Of a stretch of DNA of 43,127 bases, positions 1,613-42,990 are shown piece by piece. The stretch comes from a virus. The notes below the pieces were generated by a model. The model made no database searches and was not told the DNA's origin. It was given only the letters and a program-made list of their open reading frames with translations. Location: the IMG/VR virus record IMGVR_UViG_3300020032_000016, positions 1-43,127 of that record. The stretch is one strand, 5' to 3'. Position 1 is the first letter of the stretch. Each line of letters starts with the position of its first letter. The translations under genes and the position numbers were made by a program.

Positions 1613-2112
1613 TTTCGCAAGAAGTATCAGGTAAAATTCAGCTCGCACCATTTTTAAGTTATCATTGCTACCATAGCTCGCACTTTATTATAGTTATCAT
1701 TATTTTCGAAGCTCGCAACTAATATTAGTTATCATTAATTTTTGAAGCTCGCAACTAATATTAGTTATCATTAATCTTTGAAGCTCGCATTACGTAACAG
1801 GTATCGTTATATTTCAGGCTCGCATTATGCAGTAGTTAACAAATACACTCCAGCTCGCTAATCATGAAAGTTATCAGTAAAATATTAGCTCGCAAATTAT
1901 GTTAGAGATCAAATAATTCGTAGCTCGCAATTAATTTTAGTTATCATATTTACCTTAGCTCGCAATATTTTATAGAAATCAATGTTTATTTGGCTCGCAA
2001 TTCACTTTAGATATCAAATTATTTTTAGCTCGCACAAAAGGCTAGTTATCATACACATCTTAGCTCGCACCCACTATAAAGCATCAGGGAAACCAAAGCT
2101 CGCATAGTATCA
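1613..2112 (-). repeat. TIGR-like tandem interspaced repeat array, about 14 units of 35-36 bp
   Basis: Read on the minus strand, each unit is box 1 (consensus TGCGAGCT), 10 variable nt (11 in two units), box 2 (consensus TGATAACT), 9 variable nt. On the plus strand the GCTCGCA form of box 1 starts at 1641, 1676, 1711, 1747, 1783, 1818, 1853, 1888, 1923, 1958, 1993, 2028, 2063 and 2098; the 1853 copy ends T, not A. Spacing is 35 nt, or 36 twice. GCGAGC is invariant in all 14 units. Box 2 is exact in seven and degenerate in the rest (TGAT in 12 of 14). Two adjacent units (boxes at 1747 and 1783) are near-identical, so the array grows by unit duplication. Both ends carry a degenerate box 2 directly against box 1. 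The period is not a multiple of 3 and no long frame crosses it. It lies immediately 3' of the IS110-C-terminal-like gene on the same strand. Two boxes with two short variable segments per about 36 nt is the known layout of TIGR arrays (dual-spacer tigRNAs). Confidence 0.85.
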
Positions 2113-2125
2113 AAACAACCTGAGC

Positions 2126-2827
2126 TTAACTAACTAACTTGTCAAATTTTTTCTTTCTTACTTCTTCTTTTGTCATAAAATCTTCTGGTCTAAATCTTGT
2201 TGTATGACCAAGATATTCAAATACATATTCTTTTCTTGTTGTATTTCCTAGTGCTTCATTCCATTTTTCCCAGACATGGGCAAGAAAGATTTTTTCCATT
2301 TTTCTAAGTGCAGCTAGATGAACATGCTTTGGAGTCCAATCCCTTTGTTCTGCATATTTTTCTTTATAATGATCATAAATTTCTCTATATGGACTATTGC
2401 TTTTAATAAATGAAGTTCCAATGTTATACATCAAAGCTTTGAATCTTGGATTATATCCCGCTGATTGTCCCTTGGTCATTTTTTGTGCTTTTCCATCTAT
2501 ACAGGCAAGTCCACTGTATTTCCATAGCTTAGAAGGCGTTGCAAAACGTTCTACATTATCAATAAATCCAATTAATTGAGCTGCTAAAGTTGGACCTATA
2601 CCTTTTACATGCTGCATAAATTCAGTCCATGCCGGGTGATATTTCAATTCATCTTTTGCAGTTTTTACTAATTTCTTTTCCATCTCTTCTAATTGATCTT
2701 GCATGTCTACATAAACTCGTGGTGTTGCATTACTTCTGCCGTTTTCAGCAGCCCAGTTTTTATTTGACAATTGTATTCTCAATTTCTGAATATCTTTATA
2801 TATCTTACTTATATCCTTTAAGCTCAT
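2126..2827 (-). CDS. Stand-alone IS110 C-terminal (Transposase_20)/Nop-like protein, candidate nuclease-less Tas
   Basis: This 233-aa protein has a charged, coiled-coil-like N-terminus (about residues 5-65), then VKGIGPTLAAQLIG (74-87), a helix-hairpin-helix, and WKYSGLACIDGKAQKMTKGQ (about 102-121). This is the order seen in the C-terminal domain of IS110 recombinases (GIG..TAA..L.EIG; L..Y.GL). The IS110 N-terminal DEDD RuvC-like domain is absent, and no HNH or RuvC motif is visible. The usual SG(K) motif around the catalytic serine is not clearly kept. The repeat array starts 14 nt after the stop. Tas proteins of TIGR-Tas systems are related to box C/D Nop proteins and IS110, and forms without a nuclease domain are known. 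That is the best reading of this pair; a domesticated IS110 remnant is the alternative. The SD GGAGG is 8 nt before ATG, overlapping the upstream gene by 23 nt. Confidence 0.7.
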   Translation of the reverse strand: MSLKDISKIYKDIQKLRIQLSNKNWAAENGRSNATPRVYVDMQDQLEEMEKKLVKTAKDELKYHPAWTEFMQHVKGIGPTLAAQLIGFIDNVERFATPSKLWKYSGLACIDGKAQKMTKGQSAGYNPRFKALMYNIGTSFIKSNSPYREIYDHYKEKYAEQRDWTPKHVHLAALRKMEKIFLAHVWEKWNEALGNTTRKEYVFEYLGHTTRFRPEDFMTKEEVRKKKFDKLVS

Positions 2828-3092
2828 TGTTTAATTCCTCCCGCTCTATTAAATAATCTCTATAAGCTTCTATTATGTGTTCAACCCTATCCGCTTTTCT
2901 TGAACCTTCGGGCCATTCTATTTTCCGGAAATATTCTATTATTTTCATGAAAGTTATTGCTCTGCTTCTCTGTTTCGGTGTTAATCTTGAATCCCAGGCA
3001 GGCTTTTCTTTACCTGCCTGGTAAGTTTCATCATCACTTGCATATATCTCTAAACCAGAGACGCCTAAGTCAAATTCAAGTTTTACATTCAT
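2805..3092 (-). CDS. Hypothetical phage protein
   Basis: This soluble protein of about 95 aa carries a TPKQRSRAITFMKIIEYFRKIEW helical region in its middle and a charged C-terminal helix. I place the start at the ATG at 3092 (MNVKLEF), 9 nt after a GGAG SD; a GTG two codons upstream (3098) is also possible. It overlaps genes on both sides by a few codons, so it is translationally coupled within the operon. The repeated Arg/Lys could mean nucleic-acid contact, but no family is recognised. Confidence 0.55.
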   Translation of the reverse strand: MNVKLEFDLGVSGLEIYASDDETYQAGKEKPAWDSRLTPKQRSRAITFMKIIEYFRKIEWPEGSRKADRVEHIIEAYRDYLIEREELNNELKGYK

Positions 3093-3360
3093 TTTCACAC
3101 ACTCCAGTGTAATATCCTCTTTCTATGTTTTTCATAATTACTTCTTCCTTAATAAAATCCATAGCTTTATTCAAATCTGGATCTTTTCGTATAATTCTCA
3201 AAGCTGTTTCTGCTGAATGAATTAAATCAAATAATTCTTCCGTCATATCATAATATGTCCCTGCTTTTTTTACTTCTTCAAGTTCACTTTCTAGATGCTT
3301 TAGTTGTTCTTCTAATGTATTTTCATCTGCAAATTTCGTTTTTGGAAACATAAAATTCAT
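3076..3360 (-). CDS. MazG-like all-alpha nucleotide pyrophosphohydrolase-like protein
   Basis: This 94-aa, entirely helical protein has LEEQLKHLESELEEVKKA near residues 15-32 and EELFDLIHSAETAL near 41-54. The spaced ExxE...EExxDxI acidic pattern is the metal-binding signature of MazG/dUTPase-type all-alpha NTP pyrophosphatases. Phages use these enzymes to hydrolyse (d)NTPs or lower ppGpp. The protein is short for the family, so activity is uncertain. The SD GGAGAG precedes ATG, and the end overlaps the next gene. Confidence 0.45.
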   Translation of the reverse strand: MNFMFPKTKFADENTLEEQLKHLESELEEVKKAGTYYDMTEELFDLIHSAETALRIIRKDPDLNKAMDFIKEEVIMKNIERGYYTGVCENECKT

Positions 3361-10908: not shown

Positions 10909-11691
10909 TCATGGCTTGTCCCTCCCCGTATTAAATAATCCCCCGTCATTAAGTTTTTGATTCCCGTAAATCCACCAATGCATTACATCTTCACCTGTTT
11001 TCCAATCACCTTTGTAGCCTTCTTCTTTACGTTTTTTTAGCATTTTCTCAAAAGTTCTGATATATTGCGCTCTATATTTTGGATAACGTTCAAAGTCTTT
11101 CTCCATTCCTTTGCTGCCCTTTTGTGGGCAGCCGATACAACCTAGTCTTGAATAACCTGGATTATCATACAAAGAACAATATGGTAAATTGTTTTTCTCA
11201 ATAAATTCCCATACATCTTGTTCTGTCCAGTCAATTATGGGACATAATATGTGTTTCTTTTGCTTTTTTACTTTGTTGTAAACTTTCCAAGTTTTCTTTC
11301 TTCTGACGCTTTCTTCCCATCTTACTCCTGTCACAACTACTCTCCCTATTCCTCCTCGTTCTTTCAAAACGTCACAACAATAACGAATTCTACGAGTAGG
11401 TGGCATTTTCTTCTTAACTATCAATCTCCACATTGTGGTTTCTGGCATTTCAATTTTTACATCTTTAAAAGTTTTGATAAATCTTACTAGCTCTGGGGGA
11501 TCGACTGTTGTTAAATTATAATGTGCGTCAAATTTAACTCCTGCCATTTTTGCTAAGTAATAAATGCAAATGCTATCTTTACCACCCGAGAAAGCTAAAT
11601 AATACCCTTCTTCCGGCTCATATTTTTTAAGACGACTAATCGCTTCTTCTACTTTGTTTTTAGTGCCAAACAAGTGGTAATCTATTAACAT
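10909..11691 (-). CDS. Phosphoadenosine-phosphosulfate-reductase-like PP-loop protein
   Basis: This 260-aa protein has the PP-loop SGGKDS near residue 35, RYCCDVLKE near 100, GVRWEES near 117 and a CIGCP motif near 185. It belongs to the adenylating PP-loop family that includes PAPS reductase and DndC. The Cys pairs could bind a 4Fe-4S cluster. In phages these proteins are common but their role is unsettled: sulfur metabolism, DNA or tRNA thiolation, or phosphorothioate-type modification. No other dnd-like genes are nearby. It overlaps the stop of the upstream gene. Confidence 0.75.
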   Translation of the reverse strand: MLIDYHLFGTKNKVEEAISRLKKYEPEEGYYLAFSGGKDSICIYYLAKMAGVKFDAHYNLTTVDPPELVRFIKTFKDVKIEMPETTMWRLIVKKKMPPTRRIRYCCDVLKERGGIGRVVVTGVRWEESVRRKKTWKVYNKVKKQKKHILCPIIDWTEQDVWEFIEKNNLPYCSLYDNPGYSRLGCIGCPQKGSKGMEKDFERYPKYRAQYIRTFEKMLKKRKEEGYKGDWKTGEDVMHWWIYGNQKLNDGGLFNTGRDKP

Positions 11692-23660: not shown

Positions 23661-23912
23661 TCAACAACCCAGTCAACAACCCAATGACTAAAGTCATGGG
23701 CTTGTAAGCCCCATGTTGACCAGACCAAGGCTTGAAACAGAGCCTACGTTATAGATGTCATGACACGTTCGGGTGCTTCTCCAGCCCGTTCCTCTGTCGT
23801 GCAAGGTTAAACAAGCGTGGTGGGTAGCGCTAGTGTCTTGCACATAACAAGCATCTATAACATGGTCGAGGAGAATATGACCTGCTTTATGCAGAGGAAA
23901 GGGGAGAACCCT
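23661..23912 (+). ncRNA. Omega RNA (HEARO RNA) of IscB
   Basis: About 250 nt of non-coding, highly structured sequence precedes iscB. Visible stems: ATGACT/AGTCAT within CCC...GGG (near 23683-23700); GGGCTT/AAGCCC (near 23698-23711); GTCAAC pairing with GTTGAC (to about 23720); GTTATAGATG (23748-23757) with CATCTATAAC (23852-23861), a perfect 10-bp long-range stem; GTGCAAG (23799-23805) with CTTGCAC (23837-23843). This position and layout match the known HEARO/omega RNA, whose 5' end carries a guide of about 16 nt taken from the upstream flank. Confidence 0.85.
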
Positions 23913-25193
23913 ATGGTTTTTGTGTTAGACACAAACAAACGTCCGCTTGCTCCTTGTCACGAAGCAGTTGCAAGAAAGCTGTTGAAACAAGGGAAGGCGG
24001 CGATTTACAGGCGATTTCCATTTACCATTATCTTGAAAAAATCAGTGGACGAATCAGAAAATGAAACAACATATCGGCTAAAAATCGACTATGGAAGCAG
24101 ACATACAGGATTAGCGATTTTGCGAGGACAAGAAGTGGTATGGTTAGGGCAACTTGACCATCGTACAGACATCAAGGAAAGAATAGATAAAAGGCGTGCT
24201 TTTCGTCGAGCAAGACGAAATCGAAAAACAAGATACAGAAAACCACGCTTTCTGAACCGCAAGCGAAAGGAGGGGTGGTTGCCGTCATCACTAGAGAGTC
24301 GTGTGCAAAATATCCAAACATGGGTTAACCGCCTAAAGAAGTTATGCCCCATTGGGTATATATCATACGAAAATGCCAAATTCGACACGCAACTCATGCG
24401 AAATCCTGAAATCAATGGTGTAGAGTATCAACAAGGCACGCTACAAGGATATGAAGTACGGGAGTATTTGCTTGAAAAGTTTGGGCGGAAGTGTTGTTAT
24501 TGCGGAAAAGAAAATGTTCCACTTGAAGTGGAGCATATCATTCCAAAATCGAGAGGTGGAACAGACCGAGTGGATAACCTATGTCTTGCCTGTCATGACT
24601 GTAATCAGCGCAAAGGAAGTAAGACAGCAGAAGAATTCGGGTATTCACATATTCAAGAAATGGTCAAAAAAACGCTAAAAGACGCAAGTATAGTGAATGC
24701 CACTCGATGGAAAGTGTATGAAGTGTTAAAGCAGACAGGATTAGATGTCGAGTGTGGAACAGGTGCACGAACAAAAATGAATCGTATTCGTTTAGACTTG
24801 CCGAAAACACATTATTTTGACGCTTGTTGTGTAGGCGAAAGCACAACAAATCACTTATATTTCAAAACAAAAGAAGTGTTATTTATCAAGGCAAAAGGGC
24901 GTGGTAGTCGCTCTCGTACAAACCTAGATAGATATGGCTTCCCAAGAGGTTATCTTGCAAGACAAAAATTCTTCTTTGGTTTTCAAACAGGGGACATGGT
25001 TAAGGCTGTTGTCCCAAGAGGGAAATATCAAGGCGTTTGGTTTGGCGAAGTCGCATGTAGAAAGACTGGAAGTTTCGATATTAAAGGCAAGGACGGAAAG
25101 CGTATCGCACAAGGAATAAATTATAGATATGTCCAAGTCATTCAGCGATTTGACGGATATGCTTATGGAAAGGAGGTGGCGGAACTTGCGTAA
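23913..25193 (+). CDS. iscB: IscB, omega-RNA-guided DNA endonuclease
   Basis: This 426-aa protein has all IscB domains: a PLMP-type N-terminus (RPLAPCHEAVARKLLKQGKA), RuvC-I with D59 in LKIDYGSRHTG, an Arg-rich bridge helix (about 94-112), RuvC-II with E153 in YENAKF, HNH (VEHIIPKSRGG, H208, N222, with zinc pairs C194/C197 and C227/C230), and RuvC-III with H300 and D303 in HYFDA. All catalytic residues are present, so it is likely active. IscB is the ancestor of Cas9 and cuts DNA matching the omega-RNA guide beside a target-adjacent motif. Start ATG 23913 follows GGGGAG; the frame is open to 23817 but crosses the RNA. Its neighbours are virion genes. Confidence 0.93.
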   Translation: MVFVLDTNKRPLAPCHEAVARKLLKQGKAAIYRRFPFTIILKKSVDESENETTYRLKIDYGSRHTGLAILRGQEVVWLGQLDHRTDIKERIDKRRAFRRARRNRKTRYRKPRFLNRKRKEGWLPSSLESRVQNIQTWVNRLKKLCPIGYISYENAKFDTQLMRNPEINGVEYQQGTLQGYEVREYLLEKFGRKCCYCGKENVPLEVEHIIPKSRGGTDRVDNLCLACHDCNQRKGSKTAEEFGYSHIQEMVKKTLKDASIVNATRWKVYEVLKQTGLDVECGTGARTKMNRIRLDLPKTHYFDACCVGESTTNHLYFKTKEVLFIKAKGRGSRSRTNLDRYGFPRGYLARQKFFFGFQTGDMVKAVVPRGKYQGVWFGEVACRKTGSFDIKGKDGKRIAQGINYRYVQVIQRFDGYAYGKEVAELA

Positions 25194-28498: not shown

Positions 28499-30238
28499 GT
28501 GGGTATTACCAAAAAGTCAGATTATACCTTTAAGCATGTAAATCAAGATACAAAACCTAATTGGAGTGCCGCACAAACGAAAGAAAAGTTTGATTCACAG
28601 GCTAATGAATTAAGAACCTATATCAACGATACCTTAATTCCCGAACTTGCAAAAGGCAATTACCAATACGCAACTTCCTCTACCGGCACTGACGCTTACG
28701 CAGTAACAATTGATGATGTAGACGCTTACACGGCAGGAATGGTAGTAAGGTTTAAAGCAGACGTAGCAAACACAGGAGCATGTACTTTAGACGTAAATTC
28801 ACTCGGAGCAAAAGCAATAAAACTTGATGACGGAAGCGACCCGGAAGATGGATATATACAAGCAGGTGCAATAGTAACAGTAGTATATAATGGCACTAAT
28901 TTCGTACTTTCTACACCTGGGCTTGTTGCGCATAAGGCCGATACTGCGAACCCACACAATGTTACGCCAGCGGATATTGGAGCTGTAGGTGACAAGGGCG
29001 GCGTTCCAACGATTCAGGCAGGTCTTGATGCTGACAAACCTGCTGCAGGTACAAGCGGAAGAGTATATATTGCAACTGACACAAAAATAATTTACCAGGA
29101 CAGCGGCGCTGCATGGGAAAAACGTGGGGTGGTAAACTGGAATGATGTTGATGGGAAGCCTTCTTCCTTCCCTCCAAGCGCACACAAATCCACCCATGCA
29201 AGCGGCGGAAGCGATGAACTTACGCCAAGCGACATAGGGTTAGGCAATGTAATAAATAGCTTGCAAGCAGTTTCAAAAAGATTAACAGCATCAGAATTAA
29301 ACAATAATACCACATTGGAAAGTGGAATATATACAAACGGCGGAGATGGTTTGCTTGATGAAACAGGAAGTCAAGCTTCTTTTGCTCCATCTGGAACTTG
29401 GTGGCATATAATTCATATGCATCATTATCACAATAACGGATATGATGCACAAATAGCAGTAAGATTAAATGGTGGCGTAGAAACATACTGGCGGAATTCA
29501 TCCAGTGGTACTTGGAGTGCATGGAGAAAAATTTGGACAGAAGCTAACGACGGCGCAGGGAGCGGGCTGGATGCGGATTTAGTGAAAGGAAAAGACGGTG
29601 TATGGGAACTACAATCCGGTGAGGTAGATTCTCAATTTGCAAGTCCATCGACTTATCCACGAGGACTTACTTGGGATGGTACAAACCTCTGGAATGCTGA
29701 CCCAGACACAGACAAGATATACGAACTGAACACATCAGGCACCATTCTCAATCAATTTGCAAGTCCATCGACTTATCCAACTGGACTTGCTTGGGATGGA
29801 GCAAATCTTTGGCATGCTGATTCTAACGCAGACAAAATATATGAACTCAATACATCAGGCACCATTCTCAGTCAATTTGCAAGTCCAGGGTCTTACCCTG
29901 AAGGACTCGCTTGGGATGGAGCAAATCTTTGGCATGCTGACTCAGTCGCAGAGAAGATATACGAACTGAACACAGAAGGCTCTATTCTCAGTGAATTTGC
30001 AAGTCCATCGACTAATCCACGAGGACTTACTTGGGATGGTACAAACCTCTGGAATGCTGACCCAGACACAGACAAGATATACGAACTGAACACATCAGGC
30101 ACCATTCTCAATCAATTTGCAAGTCCAGGGTCTTACCCTGAAGGACTCGCTTGGGACGGTACAAACCTCTGGCATGCTGATAATGGCGCAGACAAGATAT
30201 ATAGAATTACACTTAAATATTATTTAGTTGCCCACTAA
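28499..30238 (+). CDS. Tail fibre/receptor-binding protein with 40-residue propeller-like repeats
   Basis: This 579-aa protein has an N-terminal fibre part, a HASGGSDELTPSDIG linker shared with the head fibre, then five tandem repeats of 40 residues (about 380-575), each with YP.GL.WDG.NLW.AD...DKIYELN. Such YWTD/NHL-like repeats form beta-propellers that bind sugars or proteins. The middle (YTNGGDGLLDETGSQASFAP) resembles fibre tip modules. It is likely the host-recognition protein. GTG start. Confidence 0.75.
   Translation: MGITKKSDYTFKHVNQDTKPNWSAAQTKEKFDSQANELRTYINDTLIPELAKGNYQYATSSTGTDAYAVTIDDVDAYTAGMVVRFKADVANTGACTLDVNSLGAKAIKLDDGSDPEDGYIQAGAIVTVVYNGTNFVLSTPGLVAHKADTANPHNVTPADIGAVGDKGGVPTIQAGLDADKPAAGTSGRVYIATDTKIIYQDSGAAWEKRGVVNWNDVDGKPSSFPPSAHKSTHASGGSDELTPSDIGLGNVINSLQAVSKRLTASELNNNTTLESGIYTNGGDGLLDETGSQASFAPSGTWWHIIHMHHYHNNGYDAQIAVRLNGGVETYWRNSSSGTWSAWRKIWTEANDGAGSGLDADLVKGKDGVWELQSGEVDSQFASPSTYPRGLTWDGTNLWNADPDTDKIYELNTSGTILNQFASPSTYPTGLAWDGANLWHADSNADKIYELNTSGTILSQFASPGSYPEGLAWDGANLWHADSVAEKIYELNTEGSILSEFASPSTNPRGLTWDGTNLWNADPDTDKIYELNTSGTILNQFASPGSYPEGLAWDGTNLWHADNGADKIYRITLKYYLVAH
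29633..30220 (+). repeat. Five tandem 120-bp coding repeats
   Basis: Units begin near 29633, 29753, 29873, 29993 and 30113. Units 1 and 4 are nearly identical over 120 bp, whereas unit 2 differs more, which suggests recent recombination or duplication. The last unit is shortened. Confidence 0.85.
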
Positions 30239-37486: not shown

Positions 37487-38764
37487 GTGAGGTTATGCGT
37501 ATATGATACCCCTATACCTGATATGGAAGGTGTTACAAAGGTAGGAGACCATTCTATAGATAAGGGTATCCACGGCTATGTTGTCAATTACATAGCACGT
37601 CAGAAACATAAGGGAGAGCAGTTCGCTTATTCTGACTATAACAGCGGTGGTTTTGAAGCCTGTCTAGAATGGTGTATTGAAAATAATATAGACGTACTCA
37701 ATATAAGCAAAAATATGTTTAAGGTTAAAAGTAGAGATGAAGCACTACAAAAAGCACTAGACAAAGGAATTATCATAGTAGCAGCAGCAGGGAATAACAG
37801 TCAAGAAGATGTTGTATGGCCGGCAGAGGATGAAAGGGTAATAGCAGTAGGAGCATATAATCCTGAAACAAACGAAATAGCAGGCTATTCAAACTATGGA
37901 AAAGAGATAATTACCGTAGCAAAAGGTGAATGGTCTATCTCTACTGTAAGTGGTACTCCTTATCATGGTTACGGAACTAGTTACGCCAGTCCTGTTATAG
38001 CAGGATACTTGACTGAATGGAAAAGGATAACCGGTGGAACAAGAGAAGAAGCAGTCGAATTTATCAAACGCAACTGTAAAGATATAATGCTACCGGGAAA
38101 GGACAAATACAGTGGTTACGGCCTTTTTCAGTGGAAAGGGGTTGATGTTTTGAATAGACCTGAAAAGATTATTATTCACCATTCATTCACCGAAGATACT
38201 TTACTCAAAGACTACAACGCAATTAAGCGATATCATACAGAAGTAAAGGGTTGGAGCGATATAGGTTATCACTGGGTACTAGAAAATGTTGCAGGTAGGT
38301 TGCACTGGATACCCGGCAGAGATGAGAAAAGAGAAGGAGCACACACTATAGGAATGAATGATAAATCTATTGGTATTTGTGTTGTAGGTAACTTCGATAA
38401 AGAAGTGCCTTCTGATGAAATATATAAAGAAGTAGCAAAGAAGTGTAAAAAATTAATGCAGAAATACAACCTTTCAGTAGATGATATAGAACCGCATAGA
38501 AAGTATGCTGGTTATAAAACTTGTCCGGGTAAAAACTTCGATATAGACAAGGTAAAAGAATATATACAGTATAAAACAATCAAAACTGATGTTGCTCCTT
38601 TCATCAAAGATGGACGCACCTTTTTACCAGTGCGTTTTTTTATTGAAGCTTTCGGCGGAAGGGTAGATTGGAAAAGTGATACGCAGGAAGTAATTTGTTA
38701 CCTAAGCGGTAAGAAAGTAACTATGCAAATTGGAAGTAAGGAAATAAGAATCGAGGAGGTCTAA
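37487..38764 (+). CDS. Endolysin: subtilisin-like protease + amidase + copper-amine-oxidase-like domain
   Basis: This 425-aa protein has three parts. Residues 1-215 are subtilase-like: D7, H29 in GIHGYVVN, AAAGNNS near 100-105 and S165 in GTSYASPVIAG. Residues about 220-365 are an amidase_2 (N-acetylmuramoyl-L-alanine amidase): IIIHHS, GWSDIGYHW, IEPHRKYAGYKTCPG with H337 and C346. Residues about 370-425 form a copper-amine-oxidase-like N-domain (FIKDGRTFLPVRFFIEAFGG), seen in clostridial cell-surface proteins. The amidase cuts peptidoglycan; the role of the protease is unclear. GTG start after GGGGTGA. Confidence 0.85.
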   Translation: MRLCVYDTPIPDMEGVTKVGDHSIDKGIHGYVVNYIARQKHKGEQFAYSDYNSGGFEACLEWCIENNIDVLNISKNMFKVKSRDEALQKALDKGIIIVAAAGNNSQEDVVWPAEDERVIAVGAYNPETNEIAGYSNYGKEIITVAKGEWSISTVSGTPYHGYGTSYASPVIAGYLTEWKRITGGTREEAVEFIKRNCKDIMLPGKDKYSGYGLFQWKGVDVLNRPEKIIIHHSFTEDTLLKDYNAIKRYHTEVKGWSDIGYHWVLENVAGRLHWIPGRDEKREGAHTIGMNDKSIGICVVGNFDKEVPSDEIYKEVAKKCKKLMQKYNLSVDDIEPHRKYAGYKTCPGKNFDIDKVKEYIQYKTIKTDVAPFIKDGRTFLPVRFFIEAFGGRVDWKSDTQEVICYLSGKKVTMQIGSKEIRIEEV

Positions 38765-41642: not shown

Positions 41643-41767
41643 GGTTTTTTAGAAAAAAATTTAAAAAAAATAAAATTCCGCTATCCATTGCGAGAGAAGG
41701 GAAAGAGCGGATGGAGAGAAAAAAGAGAGAAAAAATTTAAAAAAAATTTGGAAGGAGGAGGGCAACA

Positions 41768-42990
41768 ATGGCAACTACTAAAAAAGAAGCATTATGCTAG
41801 AGCCTTTGATTGGAGAGGGATAGAGCTTAGTAAAGTCATTAGTTTTCGAACAGACAAAAGAGGTTTTAGGCAGTTTAGAGAATGGGCAGAAAAGATTGCC
41901 AGGGACGAAGGCAAGAATAAAATCATCGTAGGTATGGAGCCAACAGGGCATTACTGGTTCACTTTTGCGGCGGATATAAATAATAATGGCATGATGGTGG
42001 TGCAAGTAAATCCGTATCACGTCAAGCAATCTAAAGAATTGGACGATAACACACCCAGCAAAAATGACCGCAAGGATCCAAGAACCATAGCGATGCTTGT
42101 AAAAGATGGAAGATACTTAATTCCATACTTTCCAGAAGGTAAATATGCTGAAATAAGAAAAGCCTATGAAATTAGAGAAAGCCAGCTTAAGAAAATTTGG
42201 GCCGTAAAAAATCGAGTCCAAAGATGGCTTGATATTTACTTTCCAGAGTTTACACAAGTTTTTAAAAGCTGGGAAGGAAAGACAGCACTAATGACACTTG
42301 AGAAATTTCCCACTCCGATAAAGATACTAGAACTTGGCGCAGAAAAGATATTGACTATTTGGAGAGAAAAAGTAAAGCGTGGAGTAGGCATTAAAAAAGC
42401 CCAAGCGCTTGTGAAAAAAGCAGAAGAATCCGTAGGGATACAGACCGGGCTTGAAATGGCAGAATATGAGCTTAAGTGTATACTTCAAGAATATCATGCA
42501 ATACGTAACGTATTGGAAAAAACAGAACAGAAACTAAAGACAATAGCAGTATTAATTCCCGGAATAGATAAAATCTTGAGCATAAAAGGGATAGGAATAA
42601 TTACTGCTGCAGGTTTTATTGCAGAAGTTGGTGATTTATCACGTTTTAGTCATCCAAAGCAGATTATAAAACTTGCAGGACTTAATGTACGGGAAAATAG
42701 TTCCGGAAAGCATAAGGGACAAACCACAATAAGCAAACGTGGTAGAAAGCGCTTAAGAGCACTACTATTTAGGGCAATATTGCCGTTAGTAGCGAAGAAT
42801 GAAGTGTTCAAACAATTGCATGAGTACAATACTACAAGGCCAGTAAACCCGTTAAAAAAAATGCAATCACTTATCGCATTATGCGGAAACTGATCAGAAT
42901 AATATATGCACTGATGACTAAAGATGGTGAGGACTTATTTTTGGAATGGAGAAATTCTAAGAATAAGAGAGAAAAACAAAGAATATTAAA
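41768..42990 (+). pseudogene. IS110-family transposase, frameshifted at both ends
   Basis: The main frame encodes FDWRGIELSKVISF, GMEPTGHYWF, VNPYHVKQSKELDDNTPSKN (DEDD domain), then IKGIGIITAAGFIAEVGDLS and LAGLNVRENSSGKHKGQ with the catalytic Ser region (Transposase_20 domain). The natural ATG (41768, SD GGAGGAGGG) is in another frame. Removing one A of the A6 run near 41781 restores MATTKKKHYARAFDWRG. At the end, one missing A near 42888 separates LIALC from GKLIRIIYALMTK. Either the gene is dead or these are homopolymer errors. The 41643-41767 leader could hold a bridge RNA. The IS ends are not defined. Confidence 0.75.

What the first reader, a model, noticed from the sequence alone, without database searches (positions are those of the whole stretch)
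1613..2827. TIGR-like dual-spacer guide array beside a nuclease-less IS110/Nop-like protein in a phage
A 35-36-bp unit is repeated about 14 times with two conserved boxes (TGCGAGCT, TGATAACT) separated by variable 10- and 9-nt segments. That is far too short for CRISPR and its regularity is too strict for random repeats. It directly follows, on the same strand, the gene for a 233-aa protein with the IS110 C-terminal/HhH order but no DEDD, HNH or RuvC domain. TIGR-Tas systems, as I recall them, have exactly this: about 36-nt tigRNAs with two short spacers and loop/edge repeats, and Tas proteins related to Nop and IS110. Some Tas proteins lack nucleases. A nuclease-free version in a phage could silence rather than cut genes of rivals or of the host.
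Basis: partly seen in the sequence, partly recalled or inferred. Interest (0 to 1): 0.96.

Follow-up and report, generated by a model that had tools for sequence, protein, structure and literature searches.

The report
Phage TIGR-TasA guide-RNA array
A phage of an unidentified (probably Bacillota) host carries a nuclease-free member of the recently described TIGR-Tas family, a small RNA-guided DNA-binding protein with its own array of 13 complete two-part guides; it is a genuine new example of a known kind of system, but what it is aimed at remains unknown.

Summary
On the minus strand, directly behind the 233-aa gene (2126-2827), lies a dual-repeat array (1614-2126): 14 edge repeats TGCGAGCY, about 14 loop repeats TGATNNCT, 9-11-nt spacers, period 35-36; 0 of 100 shuffles matched it. 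The protein passes NCBIfam's TIGR-Tas model (185.5 bits, cut-off 100) and fails the IS110 one (35.5, cut-off 140). Its best solved relatives by sequence and by predicted fold are TasR and TasH. It splits from IS110 transposases by a 100/100 branch. At least a dozen other viral Tas loci carry the same kind of array. It is a solo-Nop TasA without nuclease, as Faure et al. 2025 (PMC12045711) described in phages, so this is a new member of a known kind. Modest differences: mostly 35-nt units, box C 'CU' instead of 'CCA', and a small overlapping upstream gene shared only with the nearest TasA locus, in an otherwise unrelated phage. Silencing of rivals is untested. 153 guide pairs from 16 phages show no near-exact target in their own genomes, and no excess of matches in 2.1 Mb of mostly phage and prophage DNA. 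The phage also encodes IscB with its omegaRNA and an IS110 transposase.

The parts
2126..2827 (-). tasA: 233-aa solo Nop-domain Tas protein (no nuclease)
   Evidence: NCBIfam NF052498 TIGR_Tas_endo 185.5 bits, cut-off 100; PDB 9mty TasR E 3e-36, TasH E 6.5e-19; AF2 pLDDT 89.5, Foldseek best hit 9mty TM 0.75
1614..2126 (-). TIGR dual-repeat array: 13 complete units plus truncated units at both ends, period 35-36, on the same strand and 3' of tasA
2123..2126 (-). 5'-truncated edge repeat (AGCT) overlapping the tasA stop codon; the first unit is about 9 nt short
   Evidence: sequence
2097..2104 (-). edge repeat 1 TGCGAGCT; spacer A TTGGTTTCCC, loop TGATGCTT (2079-2086), spacer B TATAGTGGG
2062..2069 (-). 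edge repeat 2; spacer A AAGATGTGTA, loop TGATAACT (2044-2051), spacer B AGCCTTTTG
2027..2034 (-). edge repeat 3; loop 2009-2016
1992..1999 (-). edge repeat 4 (TGCGAGCC); loop 1974-1981
1957..1964 (-). edge repeat 5; loop 1939-1946
1922..1929 (-). edge repeat 6; loop 1904-1911
1887..1894 (-). edge repeat 7; loop 1869-1876
1852..1859 (-). edge repeat 8 (AGCGAGCT); loop TGTTAACT 1834-1841
1817..1824 (-). edge repeat 9 (TGCGAGCC); loop CGATACCT 1799-1806
1782..1789 (-). edge repeat 10; 36-nt unit, near-duplicate of the next (one substitution in spacer A)
1746..1753 (-). edge repeat 11; 36-nt unit, duplicate partner
1710..1717 (-). edge repeat 12; loop 1692-1699
1675..1682 (-). edge repeat 13; loop 1657-1664
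1640..1647 (-). edge repeat 14; degenerate last unit with loop TGATACTT (1622-1629)
1614..1619 (-). 3'-truncated edge repeat (TGCGAA)
2805..3098 (-). 97-aa ORF overlapping the tasA start; conserved in the same place in the nearest TasA locus (L011), candidate partner
   Evidence: blastp 34%, E 4e-9; no Pfam match, no significant PHROG match; found in no other contig of the viral collection

Best explanation
A complete TIGR-TasA system carried as accessory cargo by a tailed phage. The tasA-array transcript would be cut inside the edge repeats, probably by a host RNase, into tigRNAs of about 35 nt (5'-AGCY-spacer A-loop-spacer B-TGCG-3'). A TasA dimer would hold each one through the symmetric UG (box D) and CU (box C) motifs of edge and loop. 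Spacer A pairs with one strand and spacer B with the other strand of a target of about 18-19 bp (top strand 5'-A-rc(B)-3'), unwinding and bending the DNA without cutting it. Bound TasA then blocks transcription or replication of the target, most likely in another mobile element and less likely in the host. Shown here: family, anatomy, box symmetry, guide diversity, sporadic phage distribution, no evident self-targets. Inferred from TasR, TasH and FpTasA: RNA processing, dual-strand DNA binding. Inferred and, as far as the papers held here show, untested for TasA: the biological effect. The confidence given is for TIGR-TasA identity with RNA-guided, non-cutting DNA binding; for the role against other mobile elements alone it is about 0.5.
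For: NCBIfam TIGR_Tas_endo 185.5 bits (cut-off 100), IS110 model only 35.5 bits (cut-off 140). phmmer and profile hits to solved TasR and TasH. AF2 model pLDDT 89.5 whose nearest PDB folds are TasR, TasH, then IS621. IS110 transposases separated from Tas by a 100/100 branch; nearest is L011, 99/98 (one row labelled IS110, L116, was a wrongly picked ORF and fell elsewhere). Array statistics. Box D and box C motifs agree between edge and loop within most arrays and change together between arrays (TG/TG or AG/AG is commonest in most of the 16 parsed arrays; CT/CT in this one). About 14 other Tas loci have adjacent arrays of the same type, and L011 has the same edge repeat but different spacers. 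None of the 36 searched terminase-related phage records carries Tas. Targeting geometry and FpTasA pull-down of 36-nt tigRNAs from PMC12045711.
Against: No target could be shown: no near-exact self-target in 16 phages with 153 guide pairs; 5 observed against 5.15 expected near-exact matches in 2.1 Mb of mostly phage and prophage DNA; no exact match for two pairs in all viral contigs or for their ungapped forms in the phage collection. No expression data. No terminator is recognisable behind the array; it sits inside a run of minus-strand genes. The host is not identified. Functional effects of TasA are undemonstrated in the literature held here.
Confidence: 0.85

Rival explanations
1. The same TIGR-TasA machine, but used to regulate the phage's own genes, for example by guide-directed repression of phage promoters.
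For: TasA lacks a nuclease, so targeting its own genome would not be lethal; the array lies among minus-strand genes of the non-structural block.
Against: Best own-genome matches of the 13 pairs score 189 in total against 187 for re-paired controls. Across 16 phages 0 of 153 pairs reach 17/18 in their own genome, with fewer 16/18 matches than re-paired controls (2 against 7.5).
Confidence: 0.05
2. The same machine aimed at host genes, for example to repress host defence or metabolism.
For: Faure et al. list counter-defence and gene regulation among possible roles. One pair (2069) has an exact match with a 2-nt gap in argS of three closely similar Clostridia genomes.
Against: The argS match is one independent event; a rough estimate is about 0.1 expected for the search space. 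The second pair tested had none in the same 391 genomes. The true host is unknown, so this is barely tested.
Confidence: 0.25
3. A remnant IS110 transposase that lost its DEDD domain, next to unrelated tandem repeats that bind some other protein.
For: Pfam labels it Transposase_20, PHROGs 'transposase'.
Against: The NCBIfam cut-off is met for TIGR-Tas and far missed for IS110. The tree separates it from IS110. The nearest folds are TasR and TasH. The repeats show the TIGR unit and recur next to many Tas genes.
Confidence: 0.02
4. A decaying, non-functional TIGR array: outermost units are degenerate and loop repeats vary.
For: First and last units truncated, variable loop positions 5-6, some box substitutions.
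Against: Truncated ends are normal for TIGR arrays (PMC12045711). The tasA reading frame is intact. G and C of the box pair are kept in 13/13 edges, and G in 13/13 and C in 12/13 loops. L011 keeps the same edge repeat with TasA diverged to about 50%.
Confidence: 0.05

Closest known systems
TIGR-TasA dual-repeat systems (Flavonifractor plautii FpTasA; Faure et al. 2025, PMC12045711)
   Same: Solo Nop-domain protein, adjacent array of edge-spacer A-loop-spacer B units, 5-15 units typical, truncated edge repeats at both ends, phage or provirus setting, box D/box C symmetric between edge and loop
   Different: Units mostly 35 nt rather than 36; spacer A 10-11 and B 9 nt counted from a 2-nt box C; box C is CU with no fixed third base instead of CCA; no predicted terminator behind the array; overlapping 97-aa ORF upstream
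TaTasR (PDB 9mty) and TasH (PDB 21kl and others; SpTasH of Salicola phage CGphi29 in the paper)
   Same: Nop and coiled-coil region aligns over nearly the whole 233 aa; same array logic
   Different: No RuvC or HNH domain here, so DNA cutting is not expected
IS110/IS621 bridge-RNA transposases
   Same: Shared Nop/Transposase_20 fold
   Different: No DEDD domain, guide array instead of a bridge RNA, separate clade
TasA locus of IMGVR_UViG_3300034524_000079 (L011)
   Same: TasA about 50% identical by tblastn (59% in the MAFFT alignment), same edge repeat TGCGAGCY, 35-nt period, same small upstream ORF
   Different: Different spacers, looser loop repeat; rest of the phage unrelated apart from a 31% match of the amidase-bearing ORF 37487-38764

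Membership tests
TIGR-Tas (TasA type) | Protein with the Tas Nop domain above the curated family threshold | tested here: met
   NF052498 185.5 bits, cut-off 100; PDB TasR/TasH
TIGR-Tas (TasA type) | Nop fold like TasR/TasH with coiled-coil region | tested here: met
   AF2 pLDDT 89.5, Foldseek 9mty TM 0.75, E 2e-12
TIGR-Tas (TasA type) | No RuvC/HNH nuclease domain | tested here: met
   Pfam, NCBIfam and PADLOC find none; the residues before the conserved domain are helical
TIGR-Tas (TasA type) | Adjacent array of two alternating 8-12-nt repeats with two ~9-nt variable spacers (up to 12), about 36-nt unit | tested here: met
   8-nt repeats, spacers 10-11 and 9 nt, unit 35-36 nt
TIGR-Tas (TasA type) | Box D and box C motifs shared by edge and loop, forming a G-C pair | tested here: met
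   TG and CT in both repeats; G 13/13 and C 13/13 in edges, G 13/13 and C 12/13 in loops
TIGR-Tas (TasA type) | Truncated edge repeats at both array ends (typical) | tested here: met
   AGCT at 2123-2126 and TGCGAA at 1614-1619
TIGR-Tas (TasA type) | Rho-independent terminator behind the array (described as typical, not as defining) | tested here: not met
   None found; the array lies inside a run of minus-strand genes
TIGR-Tas (TasA type) | Processing into ~36-nt tigRNAs bound by the protein | not testable with these tools
   needs small-RNA sequencing
TIGR-Tas (TasA type) | tigRNA-guided binding of both DNA strands | not testable with these tools
   needs biochemistry; the target search gave no natural target
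IS110 family transposase | DEDD N-terminal domain and curated score | tested here: not met
   No PF01548; 35.5 bits against cut-off 140; different clade
CRISPR array | Repeats of 25-36 nt with spacers of similar length and cas genes | tested here: not met
   8-nt repeats, two short spacers per unit; no Cas protein among the products searched apart from the HNH-domain similarity of IscB

The most novel reading that the evidence does not exclude
The 97-aa protein whose gene overlaps the start of tasA is a dedicated, undescribed partner of this TasA subgroup, giving the nuclease-free complex its effect. Two otherwise unrelated phages share exactly this ORF, tasA and an array with the same edge repeat, and almost nothing else.
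Probability: 0.25. Interest if true: 0.6.

Novelty: new member of a known kind. Interest (0 to 1): 0.45.

Why it matters
TIGR-Tas was described only in 2025, and the purpose and natural targets of its nuclease-free form are open (PMC12045711). This locus adds a clear phage example with a diverged repeat set (35-nt units, CU box C) and a candidate partner gene, in a phage that also carries IscB with its omegaRNA and an IS110 transposase. The negative target tests are useful: guides of 16 viral TIGR loci do not match their own genomes, which argues against self-regulation as the general role.

Tried and rejected
Self-targets: rejected. Targets among terminase-related phages and other TIGR phages: no excess over re-paired controls. 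One 17/18 match, pair 2069 to the terminase gene of related phage L007, is within chance (0.68 expected) and the site is not kept in other terminases. Exact scans of viral contigs for pairs 2104 and 2069: none. Short-query BLAST of the phage collection for the same pairs, ungapped: none; two mycobacteriophage guide pairs tried for comparison gave only 16-nt chance-level matches or none. Clostridia genomes: pair 2069 matches argS in three closely similar genomes with a 2-nt gap, counted as one event; pair 2104 none. Host identification by IS110 copies in genomes: nothing; terminase relatives point only to Paenibacillus and Clostridia. Tas in 391 Clostridia and 350 Paenibacillus-order genomes: none at E 1e-20, though no positive control rang in those searches. 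Single-sequence search of viral contigs with TasA found nothing; the alignment search found 58 loci. Structure of the 97-aa protein: low confidence, not interpreted. Three predicted tigRNA units do not fold more stably than shuffles, consistent with the published two-pair edge.

Full report
Observation. On the minus strand, 14 copies of TGCGAGCY (one with A at position 1) follow each other every 35 nt (twice 36). Between them lie loop repeats TGATNNCT, with 10-11 nt before and 9 nt after. In the whole window the edge word occurs 13 times, all here, against 1.25 expected; the edge-N10-loop pattern occurs 12 times against 0.35. A 5'-truncated edge (AGCT) overlaps the stop codon of the 233-aa gene, and a 3'-truncated edge ends the array at 1614. 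Spacers vary, except that units 1789 and 1753 are a near-identical duplication.

Protein. Pfam calls it Transposase_20, but more specific tests place it elsewhere. NCBIfam's TIGR-Tas model scores 185.5 bits (cut-off 100) and the IS110 model 35.5 (cut-off 140). The best solved relatives by sequence are 9mty (E 3e-36; identified as TIGR-TasR by the fold search) and TasH (E 6.5e-19), together covering residues 8-222. An AlphaFold2 model from 22 aligned sequences (pLDDT 89.5) matches TasR first, then TasH, then IS621. A tree of 33 rows puts the IS110 transposases on a separate 100/100 branch and the window protein beside L011 at 99/98. One row labelled IS110 (L116) was a wrongly picked ORF and should be ignored. 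No nuclease domain is present.

Related loci. An alignment-based search of viral contigs returned 58 Tas relatives. In most of those nearest to the query a dual-repeat array with a period of about 36 nt lies next to the gene, usually just behind it. In most arrays edge and loop start with the same two letters, TG in some and AG in others, and both end in the same box C, mostly CCA but CU here. This is the covariation Faure et al. describe for a symmetric dimer (PMC12045711). L011 (TasA 50% identical by tblastn) carries the same edge repeat and 35-nt period with different spacers. Its phage lacks a relative of this phage's terminase and shares, besides a 31% match of the amidase-bearing ORF, only tasA and a 90-97-aa ORF overlapping the tasA start. 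That ORF is a candidate partner; it was found in no further viral contig and has no recognised family.

Distribution. The window is a virus record. Its terminase relatives are prophages and phages, those with named hosts in Paenibacillus and Clostridia; none of 36 such records searched carries Tas, so the system behaves as sporadic cargo.

Mechanism. Shown: family membership, array anatomy, box symmetry, guide diversity. [quoted passage not shown] The target orientation 5'-A-rc(B)-3' was derived here from the published 8-nt 3' overhangs. Inferred: without a nuclease the complex blocks transcription or replication where it binds.

Targets. With that geometry no natural target could be shown. 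Own-genome matches of the 13 pairs equal re-paired controls. Over 16 TIGR phages with 153 guide pairs, none has a match of 17/18 or better in its own genome. In 2.1 Mb of mostly phage and prophage DNA there are 5 such matches against 5.15 expected. Exact scans of all viral contigs for two pairs found nothing. A gapped match of pair 2069 in argS of three closely similar Clostridia genomes is one event and not convincing. Self-regulation is therefore disfavoured; rivals or host remain open.

Array evolution, seen in passing. Within several arrays, half-spacers recur with different partners (L020, L014), besides whole-unit duplications (L020, L014, this window); the near-identical phage fragments L014 and L015 differ chiefly at one spacer B. 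This suggests growth by duplication and recombination at both repeats; it was not tested further.

Verdict. A real, well-formed TIGR-TasA locus; new member of a known kind, with small differences in unit length, box C and a possible partner gene.

Noticed in passing
window 23672-25193 (+): Complete IscB OMEGA system: Rfam HEARO (omegaRNA) at 23672-23881, 163.7 bits, directly in front of and overlapping the listed start of an IscB gene (NCBIfam 450 bits).
   Followed up: partly
window 41688-42893 (+): Full-length IS110 transposase (DEDD plus Transposase_20), nearest plasmid relative 56% in Sporomusa; the phage thus carries three RNA-guided protein families.
   Followed up: partly
L010:2523-2830 and L036-L047 at about 2520-2830: Mycobacteriophages of the Arlo type carry, just upstream of their Tas gene (76 Mycobacterium phage records have a Tas match), about four to five palindrome-flanked two-spacer units with conserved stems and variable spacers, resembling stem-type tigRNAs; no target found for two guides.
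   Followed up: partly
L030, L051, L052, L055, L058, L061-L068, upstream of the Tas-like gene: Several of these Tas-like loci share a conserved upstream gene (LVRE...DCT.DL.FAA type), adjacent to or overlapping tas; not related by eye to the 97-aa ORF of this window.
   Followed up: no
L009:3711-4010: The isolated Microcystis phage Mvi-JY20 (PP438412) has a Tas gene with an 8-unit dual-repeat array; annotated only as hypothetical.
   Followed up: partly
L020:3600-4640; L014/L015:3640-4080: Half-spacers A or B recur with different partners within one array, and two near-identical phage fragments differ chiefly at a single spacer B: a hint at how TIGR arrays change.
   Followed up: partly
window 29632-30201: 120-bp tandem repeat, 4.8 copies, inside a 579-aa ORF in the structural-gene region.
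   Followed up: no
window 10909-11691 (-): PAPS-reductase/DndC/BrxP-like protein in the minus-strand gene block.
   Followed up: no
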